Shown here piece after piece: positions 8,239 to 20,461 of a DNA stretch of 64,000 nucleotides (the first letter of the stretch is position 1; the number at the start of each line of letters is the position of its first letter). Source of the DNA: Rhododendron vialii. Taxonomy: Eukaryota; Streptophyta; Magnoliopsida; Ericales; Ericaceae. The notes under the pieces were generated by a model. The model was not told the DNA's origin. It did not search any database and saw nothing but the letters and a program-made list of their open reading frames with translations. The stretch is taken from the NCBI RefSeq assembly GCF_030253575.1, contig NC_080560.1, forward strand, positions 10,598,501 to 10,662,500, read 5' to 3'. The translations under genes and the position numbers were made by a program.

Positions 8239-10786
8239 TCAAAAGTTCGATTCTTCCGTCTGAACATAAAACAAGCCAGAGTGCCCACCATAAGGCATCA
8301 AAGCCAGCATCACAGGCCCTTTTGCACCTTGTTCAACCGTACAGATTCCCTTGTTATAGTTGATGTCCGTTTTCACAGAACCAGGGCACACTGCATTTAT
8401 GGCGATTTTAGGATAATTCTTTGCCATAACCCTTGTGTAGCCATTGAGAGCAGCTTTGGACACTATGTAAGCAGAAAAGTTGATAGGCCATCCTTTTGCT
8501 TCCAGCAAATCCTCTCTGCAATCCTCATGAAACCACTTAACTAGCTCATCCACCTTCTCTACTGTGAGGCTCTCAATTTGGCTTAGGATTTTCTTAGCCT
8601 TTTCGTTTGAAACAAACTGAAACACAATTCATGCAACTTTCTTAGGGAAAAAAAAAAGCATACAAGACCCCTGTTTGGTGCTGTTTTCTTTGGAAATAAA
8701 TGTACTGTAATTGAAAGGTCAACTCAATCATTGTGATTTTGTACACTGATGTTTTATTCAGCAAACATCTCAAGATGCATGGATGGTTTAGATTACCAAG
8801 GTGACATTGGAATGGATCCACAATGGTCTCAACTTCACGGTGAAGTTGAGACCTTCAACTTTAGCGAATCCACATTCCGAAAGATAGTCTTCGTTGTTTG
8901 AGCGAAAAACAGTCTTCGAGAATCTGGAAATTTCTTTTTCCTGGTTTTTGGAAGGTGGGTTGTTTTTTCAATTTAAAATCTTGCATGTGTTGATCTTCAA
9001 AATAACTACCTTAACAAGTTTATTCGTTTTTCACAAAACAGAAACAAGTTATTGAAAATACAAACATTAGCTAACAACCCAGAAAAATATCCCTATTTCA
9101 TCCATAATTGTTGAGGTTAAATCACAGCTTCGCTGCTATAATTATTTACATACCCTTCTTTGAGAAAAAGGAAAAAAAATCCGACACGATTGCTATATAT
9201 TCATGTGATCTAACTTGTTTGTTTTGGAACTCAAAATCCTTGCGTACGGTCCCTAATAATTTTTTTTTATCTATCTTTCTCCACTCATAAACCTCAATGA
9301 AATCCCAAACCGAAGAGGAGATAAGTTTTGTACCTGCAATTTTCCCATGGTGGAAGAAACATTAACTATTTTGGGAGAGTCTGATAGTTGAAGAAGTGGG
9401 ATAAGTTCTTCCGTCAAAAGCTTTACTGCATAATAGTTTGTTCTCAGACAAGCTTCTGCGCTCTCGAAAGTTTGCTTGAAAATTTTGCTCTTTTTAGCAT
9501 TTGGACCGAAAATCTGGCAACAAAATTGGGAATAGTAAATTTTACATGCCATAAGATGAAATAAGAACATACTCCCTCCGTCCCGATTTGTTTGTCCCAT
9601 TTTTGAATTATACATGTCCTAAATTGACCGTCCAATTTCAAAATCAATGGATCAGATTTAATTTCCTTAATAAGTTGGAAACCTGATATTGAACAATCAA
9701 ATCGGGACAAAGGGAGTATTGTATTGGTAAGATGAAGATACTAACAACATCCATGTCATATTCTACGCTGCTCTGATCTTCCGGATCAACTTCAGTTCCA
9801 GCAACACCTGCGTTATTTATCTGCACCCATATGGTATGGTTATTCTATTTTCCAAATGAAATAAAAATTTGTTTTATGATTCGATATTGCACTGGGGGTA
9901 CAAAACAAATGAAAAAGGATACGGAGTATAAAAAATAGCCTTTAAATTAAGTACCAATATGTCAAGCTTCTCGAATTTGGTTTTGATGAACTCAACCAAG
10001 GAAGCAATACTAGTTTGATTCGTCACATCAAGATGATGGAAAAGTACATCAGATAGTCCAGAAGCTTTGAGATTTTGTACGGCTTCAAGACCTCGATTCT
10101 CATCTCTTGCTGTTACTATCACCGTAACCCCATTAGAAGCTAGTTGTCTGCATATCTCTAGCCCAATTCCTTTATTGGATCCAGTTACTACAGCAATTCT
10201 AAAGACAAAAATAAACATGTGTTAGTGAAGAAGAGTGATTAATTGTCATGCAAGGTTATCCTAATTAGTAGGAGCCTATGACTTTTAACTGAAAAGTGAT
10301 GACTTCTTAAGGAGATGAGAATCGAAGATGAATACAAAAGGAAAAGCCTATGGTACAAATTTGATCAAAATTTGCATAACCTAACCAAATTAATATATTT
10401 ATATCATCTATCACCCCAATATTTTCATAACTAGCTCAAATAATTGATAAACAATTCTGCGTGTACAAAATGCACCCATTAGTAAATAGTAATCGACAAG
10501 AATAATACGTAACAAACACCATACAAAATCATAACAAATGAACAAAAAGGTATGTAATAAATCGAACCACACGATGCACTAAACATAAACTATATAACGC
10601 TCGTAGCTTACCATAAAAATCAGTTTCTAAGCATAAATATGCATAGCCTCACTTTTGAACACAATACACTTGCATATTCATGACTACGCCTAATCGAGCT
10701 GGCTTCGTTTTGCCGATGAAAAAAGAAAAAAACAGAGTGTCATAGTACATCATAGCATACCTCTTTGTCAACTGGGTTTGTTCCAT
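8239..10786 (-). CDS. Short-chain dehydrogenase/reductase, 5 exons, 300 aa
   Basis: NAD(P)-dependent oxidoreductase of the classical SDR group, closest in appearance to plant neomenthol dehydrogenase/salutaridine reductase-like enzymes that reduce terpenoid or alkaloid ketones. Exons: 10761-10786, 9955-10198, 9746-9820, 9334-9513, 8239-8616, all GT-AG and frame-consistent. The start is [21 protein letters not shown]. Cofactor motif TGSNKGIG is near residues 14-21 and NNAG near 92-95. The segment IVNVSS is present, and the catalytic YIVSK precedes [15 protein letters not shown] in the last exon. The stop TGA is at 8239-8241. Length fits the family and no break is seen. A Stowaway MITE lies in intron 3. 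The exact substrate cannot be read from sequence. Confidence 0.9.
9572..9716. mobile_element. Stowaway MITE in SDR intron 3
   Basis: Ends CTCCCTCCGTCCCGATTTGT and CAAATCGGGACAAAGGGAG are inverted repeats, with TA duplications at 9570-9571 and 9717-9718. It is 145 bases long with no coding content. It sits wholly within the intron between exons 3 and 4 and leaves the splice sites intact. Confidence 0.85.
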
Positions 10787-13060
10787 TGGATCGATGTGGT
10801 GATTATGGTGCGAAGAGGAGTAGTTTTGGGTACTTTGTGTATAGGTATAGTAGAGGATATAAATAGTTGGCGGTTGATTAGTTGCCACGCATGCCATGAC
10901 ATAATGGGAAAAATTAAAAAATATTACTCCAAAGAAGAAGCCGTAAGCCATGAGTCATGAGTCATGACTATACATATGGTTTCAGTTCAGTAGTGTTTCT
11001 CCATTATCATTTTGGGCTGGAGTAGACTATGCATTTTTTGTGGTGAGCCTCTTCCTTTAAGGTTGCAATGGCACTGGGTTGAACCCGAGCCCTACCCTAG
11101 AAACTTTGGGTCCAGGTTGGTGCGGTTTTTTTTTTTTAACAAAAAAAGCATCGGTAAGAACACAATTCTAGACATAATTGTGTTCAAAATTATTTGACGC
11201 ATGTGGTTTTACATACATTAAATGGCTCCAAACACAAATATAGCTTAAAGGAAATCAAATTCTCTGTACCGAAATTTGCTGTACTGATGCATTATTGACC
11301 AGCCAGAAAATACAGATATTATATATAAGAAAACAGTACAATAAAAGCGGACGGACGCCGTCTTCGTTGCTGATGAACTGATTCCAAGAAATTAGACCTA
11401 AAACTCTAGATCTGGCTCTGGAGTCCAAAGATAATGGAAAGAGTGGGAGGTCTTAGCTAGAGAGAGACTCAACCACCTTGCAGACATAGAAAGAAAACAT
11501 GAAGAGAGGAGAACTCTGAATATGAGAAATTGAAAGGAGAAAAGGAAGGAAGAGGGTGGAAAATGGGGGAAAAAGGAGCAGGGGGGACCCCACCCCTGAG
11601 TTTCTCTCTCTAACTCTGCTTCCTTTCTATGCATATCATTATTGGTCATTTGATCGCATAAAATGTTCAGTACTCCGTATAATCCAACGTTATGAATGCC
11701 GATATTGTCTAAATTCGGTACCCTTTAACACCTTTAATTTCGTTCCACTTCAAATACCTACCGACCAGTGCCAAACGGTACCAAAGTATTTTTAAATTTA
11801 TTTTATGCTTCAATTATCGGACAGTACCAGTTGGTGCCCATAATGATGCAACACAGCCTTCTTTTACAAAATTAGTTAAAAAAAGAGATCACAAACTTAT
11901 CTATGTTAAAGGTCTCCCTTTCAAATACAAACACAAATAGAGATAAACTCTTAATTTTTATTAATTCATAAACAAATCCTATGCCCTAAGGCTTACATCT
12001 TTATTTATATTTATAATAGTACTCGTAGAACTTTTAAACCTAGCCAACATTCCTAAAGTACAAAAAAAAAAAAAGAACATAAGGAAATAAAATCAACCAT
12101 AATTTTCTTGATCAAGTAACTTACATAATAGGAAACCTCAATAAATAAATAAATAAACTAGGAAAGTGGATACTTTTAAAATAATTTGACTAAAATTAAA
12201 ACATAATGAATTATAATACTAAGCCTTAATTAATTAAAATAAAATACGACTTTCTTGGAATTCACGCTGCATCACATAAATATCGGACTACTTTTTTATT
12301 TCTTTTTAATAAATGAGTATATTATACTAATCCCTCAATTAAAATTTTATATTTTTTTCTACAATTCACTAGATATGGATGAGTTTTTGTAATTTATGAA
12401 AAAAGTTTGAATCATTTTTGAAAGAAATACATTATTTTTTAGTCATCGTTTTGCGGATCGGACAAATATTTTGAGACGTAGATAGTAATAAATTCTTTTA
12501 TGTCGAAAAATCACCCTAATATTGATAATCCGGAATGGTACTCAATATCTCACCGATACCATCACATACCGCACCATACTACCAATAGAAAAACCGGTAC
12601 TCTAGTCAGTGTGATTTTCAGAACGTTGGTACTCCCTCCGTTCCTTTTAAGTGTTCTGCTTCGTAACTCCAACTAATTAAAAAGACATCATTATTATACC
12701 TTTCACATCAACTTTTTCCTCCACTTTTCCTATTTACCCGACATCATTAAATTTTTGCTCACTAACTTTTCAAAATAGAATGTACTTTTAGAAACAACAT
12801 AGATAATGTATCAATTTTTACTCACTAACTTTATAAAATAGATATTTATTAAGAAATAGTTCAAAATAAAATACTGAACTTTAAATAAGAGACGAATGGA
12901 GTATAACTTCCGGAGTAAAAGAAATCCACAATCTAGCGATAGAAAAACATCTCTGCACAACGGTACATACCAATTTCTCGTTTCGGAGAATCTCGAGTGT
13001 ATCTGAAAGTAGCGTCGTTAGAACTTTTTGTCCCTCTTTAAATCATGGAAAAGCGGAAAT
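10787..13060. other. Intergenic, SDR promoter side to exonuclease unit
   Basis: No gene recognised. A TATTTATAT-like box on the minus strand near 10856-10866 could serve the SDR gene. The segment 12332-12488 has Stowaway-like ends in decayed form (GATCGGACAAATATTTTGAG near its right end). A clear Stowaway element follows at 12632. The rest is AT-rich. Confidence 0.4.
12632..12901. mobile_element. Stowaway-like MITE
   Basis: Starts CTCCCTCCGTTCCTTTTAAG and ends AAATAAGAGACGAATGGAG with TA on both sides (12630-12631, 12902-12903). It is about 270 bases long and AT-rich, without coding content. Confidence 0.7.
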
Positions 13061-13135
13061 CGTTTTGACTACGAATTACAGTATAAAATTAAGCACTGAT
13101 TTCTCCAACTTGGCTAATAATCTTTTCAAATTCCA

Positions 13136-13145
13136 TATAAACTCT

Positions 13146-13190
<45 letters not shown>

Positions 13191-13195
13191 GCATA
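13136..13195 (+). promoter_or_regulatory. TATA box and CT-rich leader of exonuclease copy 1
   Basis: CATATAAACTC at about 13135-13145 is a good TATA box, followed by a CT repeat (about 13150-13189) and the ATG at 13219. The aligned base string in the second copy reads CATATCTCATCC and lacks the box. Confidence 0.6.
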
Positions 13196-13218
13196 GACAG
13201 TATTAGCAGGCAGTAGCC

Positions 13219-13848
13219 ATGACTAGCAGCATTCATTCCTTCCATCTGCCATACCACTCCTACAAACTCTACGACGTCAACTTCTTCGACGACACAATCA
13301 AAACCCTAGTCACCCACACCCCCTGCATCGTCGGCACCTGGATCTCCGACATCGAACACCTCCACCGCCGCCGCCTCCGCGACCTCGTCGTCGGCCTCGA
13401 CGTCGGGTGGCGCCCCAACTCCAACACCAACCCGGCCGCCACTCTCCAGCTCTGCGTCGGCCGCAACTGCCTCATCTTCCAGCTCATCTTCGCCCCCAGA
13501 ATGCCCAAATCCCTCGTGAACTTCCTCGCGGACGAGGATTACACCTTCGTGGGCGTTGGGATTGAAAAGGATGTCGATAAGTTGAGGGAGGATTACGGGC
13601 TGAAGGTGAGGAACTGGGTGGACCTGAGGCGGTTGGCCGCGAGGGAGTTGCGTTACAGGCAGCTTCGCAATGCGGGGCTGGTGAAATTGGCGAGGGAGGT
13701 CCTGGGGAAGGAGTTTGTGAAGCCTAGGAGCGTCACGCTGAGTGATTGGGACGATGATCGGCTCAGTAGGGAGCAGATTCAGTACGCTTGCGTTGATGCT
13801 TTTGTGTCGTTTGAGATTGGAAGGTGTTTGGATGCTGCTGATGTTTAG
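13219..13848 (+). CDS. WRN-like 3'-5' exonuclease, catalytic Glu lost
   Basis: Intronless 209-aa protein of the plant Werner-syndrome-like/RNase D exonuclease-domain family (DEDDy nucleases that remove nucleotides from 3' ends). It starts MTSSIHSFHL, shared with the paralogue at 19551. Exo I should read GLDxEWRPN; here it is GLDVGWRPN, D61 kept but Glu63 replaced by Gly (GGG at 13405-13407, GAG in the paralogue). Exo II VGVGIEKDVDKL (D118) and Exo III YACVDAF (Y189, D193) are intact. The reading frame is undamaged and codon use matches the sister, so it is not a plain pseudogene. By family knowledge the Exo I Glu binds catalytic metal, so activity is probably lost or strongly reduced. It could act as a binding-only protein; that part is inference. 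Confidence 0.9.
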   Translation: MTSSIHSFHLPYHSYKLYDVNFFDDTIKTLVTHTPCIVGTWISDIEHLHRRRLRDLVVGLDVGWRPNSNTNPAATLQLCVGRNCLIFQLIFAPRMPKSLVNFLADEDYTFVGVGIEKDVDKLREDYGLKVRNWVDLRRLAARELRYRQLRNAGLVKLAREVLGKEFVKPRSVTLSDWDDDRLSREQIQYACVDAFVSFEIGRCLDAADV

Positions 13849-14089
13849 CCAGTAAGGTAACCTAATGTGGATTTTTGAAATGTGGGGTTTGTTTGGGGTG
13901 GTTTGGCTTGTATTAGGTTGTAAATATTCTTATCATTGAAATTTCATGGAGATCAGGGTGATCAGGGGTTACATCACCATTATAGAGTTTGCGGTTTATA
14001 TGATTGTAGATTTTGGGTTGAAGCTGTTGGATTGAGAATTTTGGGGATGGTTTTGCTTGTATTGTGTTTTTTCTTTTTTGGTAATGCAG
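13849..14089. other. 3' flank of exonuclease copy 1
   Basis: Aligns with 20196-20460 behind the second copy (shared phrases such as TAGGTTGT and GGGTTGAAGCTGTT). It probably contains the 3' UTR; a clear polyadenylation signal was not picked out. Confidence 0.4.
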
Positions 14090-19195: not shown

Positions 19196-19550
19196 CTAAA
19201 TTAAATTCATAAGAACACATCCTAAAACCGAAATGAATAACCGAGGTCACATGGCTCCGTGAATACATCAGCATCTTAGGAAATGGCATGGCATAAGGTA
19301 GTAATCAGATGAGAAAAGCGGAACTGTCGTTGACGATGTTTTGACTTCCAATTAATTTTTTTTGAATATGACTTCCAATTAATTTAAGCACTGATATCTC
19401 CCAGACGACTAAATAATCTTTTGAATCTCTCTCTCCCACATGACTGAATAGTCTTTTCAAATTCCATATCTCATCCAATTCATACCTATCCGCTCCCCGC
19501 CTCCATCAAAGAAATCTGCTCTCTCTCCCTCTCCGGCACAGAAAGTAGCC

Positions 19551-20195
19551 ATGACAATCAGCATTCAGTCCTTCCATCTGACATACCACTCCTACCAACT
19601 CTACGACGTCAACTTCTTCGACGACACCGTCAAAACCCTAGTCACCGACACCCCCTGCATCGTCGACACCTGGATCTCCGACATCGAACGCCTCCACCAC
19701 CACCGCCTCAACAACCTCATCGTCGGCCTCGACATCGAGTGGCGCCCCAACTTCAACAACAACTACAACTCCACCAACCCCGCCGCGCTTCTCCAGCTCT
19801 GCGTCGGCCGCAACTGCCTCATCTTCCAGCTCATCTTCGCCCCCCACATGCCCCAGTCCCTCGTGAACTTCCTCGCCGACGAAGATTACACCTTTGTCGG
19901 CGTTGGAATCGAAAAAGACGTTGATAAGTTGAGGGAGGATCATGGGCTGGAAGTGAGGAACACGGTGGACCTGGGGTGGTTGGCCGCGAGGGAGTTGCGC
20001 AACAGGCAGCTTCACAACGCGGGGTTGGTGACATTGGCGAGGGAGGTTCTGGGGAAGCAGTTTGTGAAGCCTAGGAACGTCACGCTGAGTGATTGGAACG
20101 ATGATTGGCTCAGTGAGGATCAGATTCAGTACGCTTGTGTTGATGCTTTTGTTTCGTTCGAGATCGGAAGGAGTTTGGATGCTGCTAGTGTTTAG
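19551..20195 (+). CDS. WRN-like 3'-5' exonuclease, catalytic set intact
   Basis: Intronless 214-aa DEDDy exonuclease-domain protein, tandem paralogue of 13219-13848. It starts MTISIQSFHL after a CT-containing leader. Exo I GLDIEWRPN gives D61 and E63, Exo II VGVGIEKDVDKL gives D123, and Exo III YACVDAF gives Y194 and D198, so all catalytic residues are present. A five-residue insertion (NNNYNST region, 68-76) distinguishes it from the first copy. Plant relatives of this size lack the helicase of animal WRN and act as stand-alone exonucleases. Upstream, the TATA box of the sister is replaced by CATATCTCATCC, so expression may differ. Substrate (DNA or RNA) cannot be told from sequence. Confidence 0.92.
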   Translation: MTISIQSFHLTYHSYQLYDVNFFDDTVKTLVTDTPCIVDTWISDIERLHHHRLNNLIVGLDIEWRPNFNNNYNSTNPAALLQLCVGRNCLIFQLIFAPHMPQSLVNFLADEDYTFVGVGIEKDVDKLREDHGLEVRNTVDLGWLAARELRNRQLHNAGLVTLAREVLGKQFVKPRNVTLSDWNDDWLSEDQIQYACVDAFVSFEIGRSLDAASV

Positions 20196-20461
20196 CTAAT
20201 AATAAGGTACCCTAAATGCTTGACCATGTCTAAGTACCACATTTTGGATACTAGGTAAAGTGTCACCATTCCATTCGTAGAATTTGGATTTCGTGATGTG
20301 GGTTTTGGCTTTTATTAGGTTGTCTATATCTTGTCATTGAAAGTCCATGGTCGGTGGTACTAAATCACCATTTCAGAGTTCACACTTTACAGTTTATATC
20401 ATCGTTGGTTTTGGGTTGAAGCTGTTTGATGGAGGACTTTGGGGGAACTCGAGGGTGTTGT

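What the first reader, a model, noticed from the sequence alone, without database searches (positions are those of the whole stretch)
13405..13407. Tandem exonuclease paralogue with a single catalytic Glu-to-Gly change
The copy at 13219 has GLDVGWRPN while its neighbour at 19551 has the normal GLDIEWRPN. All other Exo II and III residues are kept and the frame is open over 209 codons. One base (GAG to GGG) would turn a DEDDy nuclease into a probable binding-only protein, with an active sister 6 kb away. A dominant-negative, dosage or guide-binding role is possible but is inference.
Basis: partly seen in the sequence, partly recalled or inferred. Interest (0 to 1): 0.75.

Follow-up and report, generated by a model that had tools for sequence, protein, structure and literature searches.

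The report
Plant exonuclease duplicate missing catalytic glutamate
One of two neighbouring plant copies of a DNA/RNA-trimming enzyme has really lost one of its catalytic residues, but several other members of this gene family in the same genome have lost it too, so it is most likely a duplicate drifting out of use rather than a new kind of molecule.

Summary
Codon 63 of the 209-codon frame at 13219-13848 is GGG (Gly); the neighbour at 19551-20195 has GAG (Glu) at the Exo I position of a DEDDy 3'-5' exonuclease (PF01612). The other four catalytic positions are kept. GAG is ancestral: a broken third copy upstream of the window and two genes at 17.8 Mb on the same contig have GAG. It is not the only difference: 35 replacements and a 5-residue gap separate the copies.

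It is not exceptional here: of nine open-frame members that I aligned, out of 30 genome matches, five lack the Exo I Glu. Copy 1's frame was constrained for most of its life (one in-frame indel against 20-24 expected). Its N-terminal half now shows 9 replacement to 1 silent unique codons (copy 2: 3 to 5; p 0.043), but branch dN/dS is 0.38, like copy 2's, with 1 not rejected.

Best reading: birth-and-death of a nuclease family, with copy 1 probably catalytically crippled and recently relaxed. A retained binding-only or dominant-negative role is open and untested.

The parts
13219..13848 (+). Copy 1: single open frame of a DEDDy-type 3'-5' exonuclease-like protein, 209 aa, Exo I D61-V62-G63
13399..13407 (+). 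Exo I Asp61-Val62-Gly63 (GAC GTC GGG); codon 13405-13407 is the changed one
13570..13572 (+). Exo II Asp118 codon, kept
   Evidence: position computed
13783..13797 (+). Exo III Tyr189 to Asp193 codons, kept
   Evidence: position computed
19551..20195 (+). Copy 2: sister frame, 214 aa, canonical DEDDy residues (Exo I D61-I62-E63)
13102..13202 (+). 5' flank homologous to 19432-19547 of copy 2: the duplication covers the 5' flank
13879..14046 (+). 3' flank homologous to 20281-20444 of copy 2; further matching patches reach about 16.1 kb

Best explanation
Copy 1 is one product of birth-and-death evolution in a plant family of small WRN-exo-like DEDDy exonucleases. SHOWN: a segment with flanks was duplicated nearby; the ancestor had GAG at Exo I; copy 1 acquired GGG; its reading frame was kept under constraint for most of the time since duplication; other open-frame members in the same genome lack Exo I residues and further copies are broken. 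INFERRED: Exo I Glu helps to hold one of the two catalytic metals together with the Exo I Asp, so Gly63 should leave the fold and part of the nucleic-acid path but strongly reduce or abolish metal-dependent cleavage. INFERRED: with copy 2 and two intact genes at 17.8 Mb able to cover the activity, constraint on copy 1's catalytic N-terminal half has recently relaxed, and it is an early-stage pseudogene that still looks intact.
For: GAG in copy 2, broken copy 3 and two outgroup genes, GGG only in copy 1. Flanks show 20 indel events in 524 aligned bases against one, in-frame, in 627 coding bases (24 expected, P 1e-9; 19.6 expected and P 6e-8 from the nearest flanks alone), so drift over the whole lineage is excluded; at most about the last 26-30% of it could have been unconstrained at P=0.05. 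In codons 1-113, copy-1-unique codons are 9 replacement: 1 silent, against 3:5 in copy 2 (Fisher p 0.043; 0.050 with one codon dropped). dN/dS = 1 not rejected on the copy-1 branch (p 0.39). Copy 3 is frameshifted and interrupted; three copies on contig C6 lack LDIE of Exo I, two of them with stops.
Against: The point estimate of dN/dS on the copy-1 branch is 0.38, close to copy 2's 0.34 (p for a difference 0.93), and neither differs from the rest (p 0.35 and 0.28), so whole-gene relaxation of copy 1 is not shown; with these outgroups copy 2 even has more polarised replacements (10 against 6, 19 unpolarised). Over both segments comparable with copy 3 the excess is not significant (10:3 against 8:10, p 0.14), and in codons 107-166 copy 1 shows 1 replacement to 2 silent. 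Four of five catalytic residues persist. Some copy-1-unique codons may be changes shared by copies 2 and 3 instead. No transcript data.
Confidence: 0.55

Rival explanations
1. Retained pseudo-exonuclease: copy 1 lost cleavage but is kept because it binds nucleic acid or a partner, possibly poisoning mixed complexes with copy 2.
For: Frame open, Exo II and III residues kept. Net charge +1 (pI 7.7) against -12 (pI 4.9) in copy 2 and -9/-6 in the outgroups; on a parsimony reading 11 charge-raising against 2 charge-lowering replacements fall on the copy-1 branch (p 0.022), 3 and 3 on copy 2's, 2 unpolarised; starting from copy 2, 41 random replacements give +13 or more with P 0.0055-0.0097 by simulation. 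Dead RICE1 D52A and Y54S, in a distant plant relative, act as dominant negatives when over-expressed (PMC5451212, passages). An open-frame cousin at C4:43.36 Mb with G-V-Q also exists.
Against: The charge test was thought of after seeing the data. Across nine family members the link of charge to a lost active site vanishes when tails and catalytic positions are left out (p 0.29), and on that measure copy 2 (-8) is further than copy 1 (+4) from the outgroups (-2, +1). No evidence of expression, oligomerisation or conservation in other species.
Confidence: 0.22
2. Still an active nuclease with altered chemistry, as RICE1 works without the Exo I Glu.
For: RICE1 has Tyr54 there and is active, also with EDTA present (PMC5451212, passages).
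Against: RICE1 differs at Exo III as well (Ala183, Glu187); copy 1 keeps the canonical Tyr/Asp there, so it looks like a metal-type site missing one ligand. Mutants of RICE1, Y54S among them, lost all or nearly all activity.
Confidence: 0.12
3. Assembly or base-call error at 13406.
For: Only one assembly was seen; no reads were available.
Against: In the genome search copy 1 matches only itself at 100% and copy 2 at 87%; it carries 65 other base differences from copy 2 in the aligned coding region (66 in all), so it is not a collapsed copy.
Confidence: 0.06
4. Polymorphic or very recent allele in this individual, with GAG elsewhere in the species.
For: A single transition; nothing here fixes its age.
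Against: None available.
Confidence: 0.05

Closest known systems
WRN-exo / EXD2 type DEDDy exonucleases (Pfam PF01612)
   Same: Best solved matches of both copies (2fbt, 6k17; E 1e-17 to 1e-21); same order of Exo I, II and III; copy 2 has all five residues.
   Different: Stand-alone 209-214 aa frames without a helicase part; copy 1 has Gly for the Exo I Glu.
Arabidopsis RICE1/RICE2 (At3g11770, At5g06450)
   Same: Weaker solved matches (5v5f, 1vk0); RICE1 (paper) and RICE2 (my alignment) also lack the Exo I Glu; catalytically dead RICE1 mutants act dominantly (PMC5451212, passages).
   Different: RICE has Tyr at Exo I and Ala/Glu at Exo III; copies 1 and 2 keep Tyr/Asp at Exo III. No hexamer data here.
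G-V-Q cousins at C4:43.35-43.36 Mb in this genome
   Same: Same family (38-40% identity to copy 2), one unbroken frame among three neighbouring copies, Exo I lost.
   Different: Both Exo I acids replaced (G and Q); a distant branch, not the origin of Gly63.
Ssd1/Dis3L2 pseudonucleases of fungi
   Same: Repeated loss of nuclease active sites, in some cases after duplication, with an RNA-binding role (PMC8097288, abstract).
   Different: Another family (RNase II); function shown there, not here.

Membership tests
PF01612 (DNA_pol_A_exo1, 3'-5' exonuclease) domain | Score above Pfam's gathering cut-off | tested here: met
   57.4 bits (copy 1) and 62.8 bits (copy 2) against 23.6
Active DEDDy exonuclease | Asp and Glu of Exo I, Asp of Exo II, Tyr and Asp of Exo III | tested here: not met
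   Copy 1 D, G, D, Y, D; copy 2 D, E, D, Y, D
Active DEDDy exonuclease | Metal-dependent 3'-5' cleavage | not testable with these tools
   needs purified protein
RICE family | Tyr for the Exo I Glu, Ala and Glu at Exo III | tested here: not met
   Copy 1 Gly, Tyr, Asp; copy 2 Glu, Tyr, Asp; RICE1 residues from PMC5451212 passages
RICE family | Homohexamer with active site between subunits | not testable with these tools
   The only structure model made was of low confidence (pLDDT 37) and is not used
Retained pseudoenzyme | Catalytic residue lost from an active-type ancestor | tested here: met
   GAG in copy 2, copy 3 and both outgroups
Retained pseudoenzyme | Purifying selection after the loss | tested here: inconclusive
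   Frame kept, branch dN/dS 0.38 with 1 not rejected, 9:1 replacement to silent in codons 1-113
Retained pseudoenzyme | Same inactive state in other species | not testable with these tools
   No relatives of this plant are held; one prokaryote and one viral scan found none
Pseudogene | Stops or frameshifts | tested here: not met
   209 codons open

The most novel reading that the evidence does not exclude
Copy 1 is a maintained, catalytically dead exonuclease that has gained positive charge, and works by holding nucleic-acid 3' ends or by joining and poisoning copy 2; this plant's family would then have produced pseudo-exonucleases more than once (also the G-V-Q branch).
Probability: 0.18. Interest if true: 0.5.

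Novelty: new member of a known kind. Interest (0 to 1): 0.25.

Why it matters
The pair is a clean natural experiment: sister genes 6 kb apart with a polarised change at one predicted metal-ligand residue. But loss of catalytic residues and breakage of copies both recur in this family in this genome, so the finding mainly documents ordinary turnover. It would matter more if copy 1 or the G-V-Q branch turned out to be expressed and conserved: apart from RICE1/RICE2, the listings of my searches (titles and abstract starts only) show no study of plant members of this kind that lack a complete DEDDy site.

Tried and rejected
Scans of prokaryote genomes and viral contigs with copy 2 found no relative. 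NCBIfam gave only matches far below its cut-offs, and ARAGORN, run with the bacterial code, found no tRNA gene in the window. (outgroup alignment) was spoiled by a file-reading slip that made 'copy 1' a concatenation of both copies; its numbers are discarded and the step was redone in other form. Pairwise dN/dS of the two copies (0.40-0.45; below 1 with p 0.0017, not different from 0.5, p 0.43) cannot tell which copy is constrained, so it was followed by branch tests with outgroups. A family tree had very long branches and no starred fork, so the number of independent Exo I losses was not counted. The family-wide link of basic charge with a lost active site failed its control. Positive selection in the N-terminal half was considered: silent changes there are few, but strong use of codons ending in C or G and possible gene conversion could explain that as well, and 9:1 is little above the 3.4:1 ratio of sites. 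Papers on EXD1, a possible animal parallel recalled from memory: a listing and two passages told nothing on its activity and the key paper was not held, so it is not used. A Pfam-wide search of the genome did not complete.

Full report
WHAT IS THERE. The frame at 13219-13848 encodes 209 residues and that at 19551-20195 encodes 214; both are open from ATG to stop. Codon 63 is GGG in the first and GAG in the second. Both score above the Pfam cut-off for PF01612. Their best solved relatives are the WRN exonuclease (2fbt, 2e6l, 9hzg) and EXD2 (6k17); At5g06450 and At3g11770 (RICE2, RICE1) follow. The copies are not otherwise the same: 35 of 209 aligned codons differ by replacement, 21 by silent change only, and there is one 15-base in-frame gap.

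THE LOCUS. The window is C4:10598501-10662500 of a 532.6-Mb, 13-contig genome with no name given; gene content and size say plant, the species was not determined. Homology between the two copies covers about 100 bases of 5' flank, the coding region and patches of 3' flank. A third copy lies at C4:10584024-10585154, 13.3-14.5 kb upstream of the window start. It is frameshifted and split by an insert, and beside it lies a stretch 84% identical to 8239-9162 of the window. Two intact frames (215 and 220 aa) lie at C4:17.80 and 17.83 Mb.

POLARITY. At the Exo I codon, copy 2, copy 3 and both 17.8-Mb genes read GAG; copy 1 alone reads GGG. That makes Glu ancestral and Gly a single transition on the copy-1 branch.

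SELECTION. Three kinds of evidence do not fully agree. (1) The frame. Alignable flanks have 20 indel events in 524 bases; the coding region has one, in-frame, in 627. Neutral drift since duplication is excluded (24 expected, P 1e-9; with the two nearest flanks alone 19.6 expected, P 6e-8), and the unconstrained part of copy 1's history can be at most about 26-30% at P=0.05 (flank alignments with permissive gaps may overstate the indel rate). (2) Branch dN/dS with the 17.8-Mb genes as outgroup: copy 1 0.38, copy 2 0.34, rest 0.23; no difference between copies (p 0.93) nor of either from the rest (p 0.35, 0.28); 1 not rejected for copy 1 (p 0.39) nor strictly for copy 2 (p 0.07). Polarised replacements are 6 on copy 1, 10 on copy 2 and 19 unpolarised. 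Power is low because the outgroup is distant (internal dS about 1.1; all). Pairwise dN/dS is 0.40-0.45, below 1 (p 0.0017) but not below 0.5 (p 0.43). (3) Unique codons with copy 3 as third sequence: in codons 1-113 copy 1 has 9 replacement and 1 silent, copy 2 has 3 and 5, broken copy 3 has 7 and 7; in codons 107-166 copy 1 has 1 and 2, copy 2 has 5 and 7, copy 3 has 5 and 3. The contrast of copies 1 and 2 in the first segment is p 0.043 (0.050 when one codon whose outgroup state matches copy 1 is dropped) and over both segments p 0.14. I read this as a gene kept for most of its history, with its Exo I half now poorly constrained. That last step is an inference from marginal numbers.

HOW UNUSUAL. 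A protein search of the genome gave 30 matches. I aligned the nine that are long open frames: copies 1 and 2, C4:17.80, C4:17.83, C13:0.49, C4:43.36, C3:27.57, C13:27.17 and C5:26.48. Exo I Glu is present in 4 of 9; the other five have G, Q, S, L and K there. Full DEDDy is also 4 of 9. The 21 matches left out are fragments, second pieces of a locus, short frames, or copies with stops or frameshifts. They include two more G-V-Q copies at C4:43.35-43.36 Mb (one of them still 206 codons open but frameshifted near its end) and three C6 copies in which LDIE of Exo I is missing; copy 3 among them keeps GAG. The protein search reads exons one by one and scores only the best candidates, so the family is a lower bound. 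Alignments of the three most divergent members (C3, C13:27.17, C5) are less certain than the rest, and a tree of the nine was too poorly resolved to count losses.

CHARGE. Copy 1 has net charge +1 (pI 7.7); copy 2 has -12 and the outgroups -9 and -6. Under parsimony 11 of 13 charge-changing replacements on the copy-1 branch raise the charge (p 0.022), copy 2's branch has 3 and 3, and 2 are unpolarised. Starting from copy 2, 41 simulated random replacements give +13 or more with P 0.0055-0.0097. This was noticed first and tested afterwards. When tails and the catalytic positions are left out the family-wide link with a lost active site disappears (p 0.29) and copy 2, not copy 1, is the more extreme against the outgroups. 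I therefore give it little weight.

MECHANISM. In the DEDD superfamily the Exo I Asp and Glu help to hold the two catalytic metals (established knowledge of the superfamily, recalled). Residue 63 aligns with residue 84 of full-length WRN, and WRN E84A is used as the exonuclease-dead form (PMC4787784, passages; listing of eight papers). So Gly63 very probably cripples copy 1 as a metal-dependent nuclease while leaving the fold. A caution comes from RICE1, which has Tyr there, no metal seen in the crystal and EDTA-resistant activity, but with a different Exo III (PMC5451212, passages). No oligomerisation or partner evidence exists for copies 1 and 2.

VERDICT. It is best seen as one more loss of a catalytic residue in a fast-turning-over family, most likely an early pseudogene. 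A retained binding-only protein is possible and testable. Papers on these plant paralogues were sparse in the library: searches for 'Werner syndrome-like exonuclease' with gene family and plant (9 papers, listing seen), RNase D/DEDDy/WEX/Arabidopsis (11, listing seen), pseudonuclease with Arabidopsis (1, listing seen; its abstract was read), At5g06450 with exonuclease (2, listing seen) and five Arabidopsis locus names recalled from memory (4, listing seen) showed, in titles and abstract starts, no study of inactive members of this family other than the RICE work.

Noticed in passing
12630-12903: A repeat beginning TACTCCCTCCGTTCC (typical end of a plant Stowaway-type MITE, recalled) ends about 315 bases upstream of the copy-1 ATG; an inverted relative (82% over 275 bases) lies 5' of copy 3. 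The end motif, with up to 2 mismatches, occurs 8 times in the window against 0.08 expected. No terminal inverted repeat of 10 bases or more was found.
   Followed up: partly
L020:6022-7155 (C4:10584021-10585154): Broken copy 3 is a mosaic: its first half is nearer copy 2 (87.4 against 84.5%), its second nearer copy 1 (87.0 against 81.3%), which suggests gene conversion or recombination among the copies.
   Followed up: partly
13219-13848 compared with 19551-20195: Silent divergence is very uneven: 0.04 per site in codons 1-76, 0.37 in 77-125, 0.17 after that (copy-2 numbering), also a possible trace of gene conversion or of strong use of codons ending in C or G.
   Followed up: partly
L007, L013, L014, L019, L050 (contigs C1, C12, C5, C1, C2): A similar exonuclease fragment of about 45-57 residues around Exo II is scattered over at least four contigs, as if carried by a transposable element.
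   Followed up: no
L008, L017, L018 (C6): Three C6 copies all lack the residues LDIE of Exo I at the same place; two carry stop codons, so copies may have spread after losing Exo I.
   Followed up: no
L049 (C13:27166149-27166532): A 310-aa open frame with Exo I D-V-L and Glu in place of the Exo III Asp, recalling RICE1's Glu187; it may be this plant's RICE-like branch.
   Followed up: no
L037/L010 (C4:43362483-43363118): A 215-aa open frame with G-V-Q instead of D-x-E at Exo I but Tyr and Asp of Exo III kept, with two broken neighbours: perhaps a better candidate for an established pseudo-exonuclease than copy 1.
   Followed up: partly
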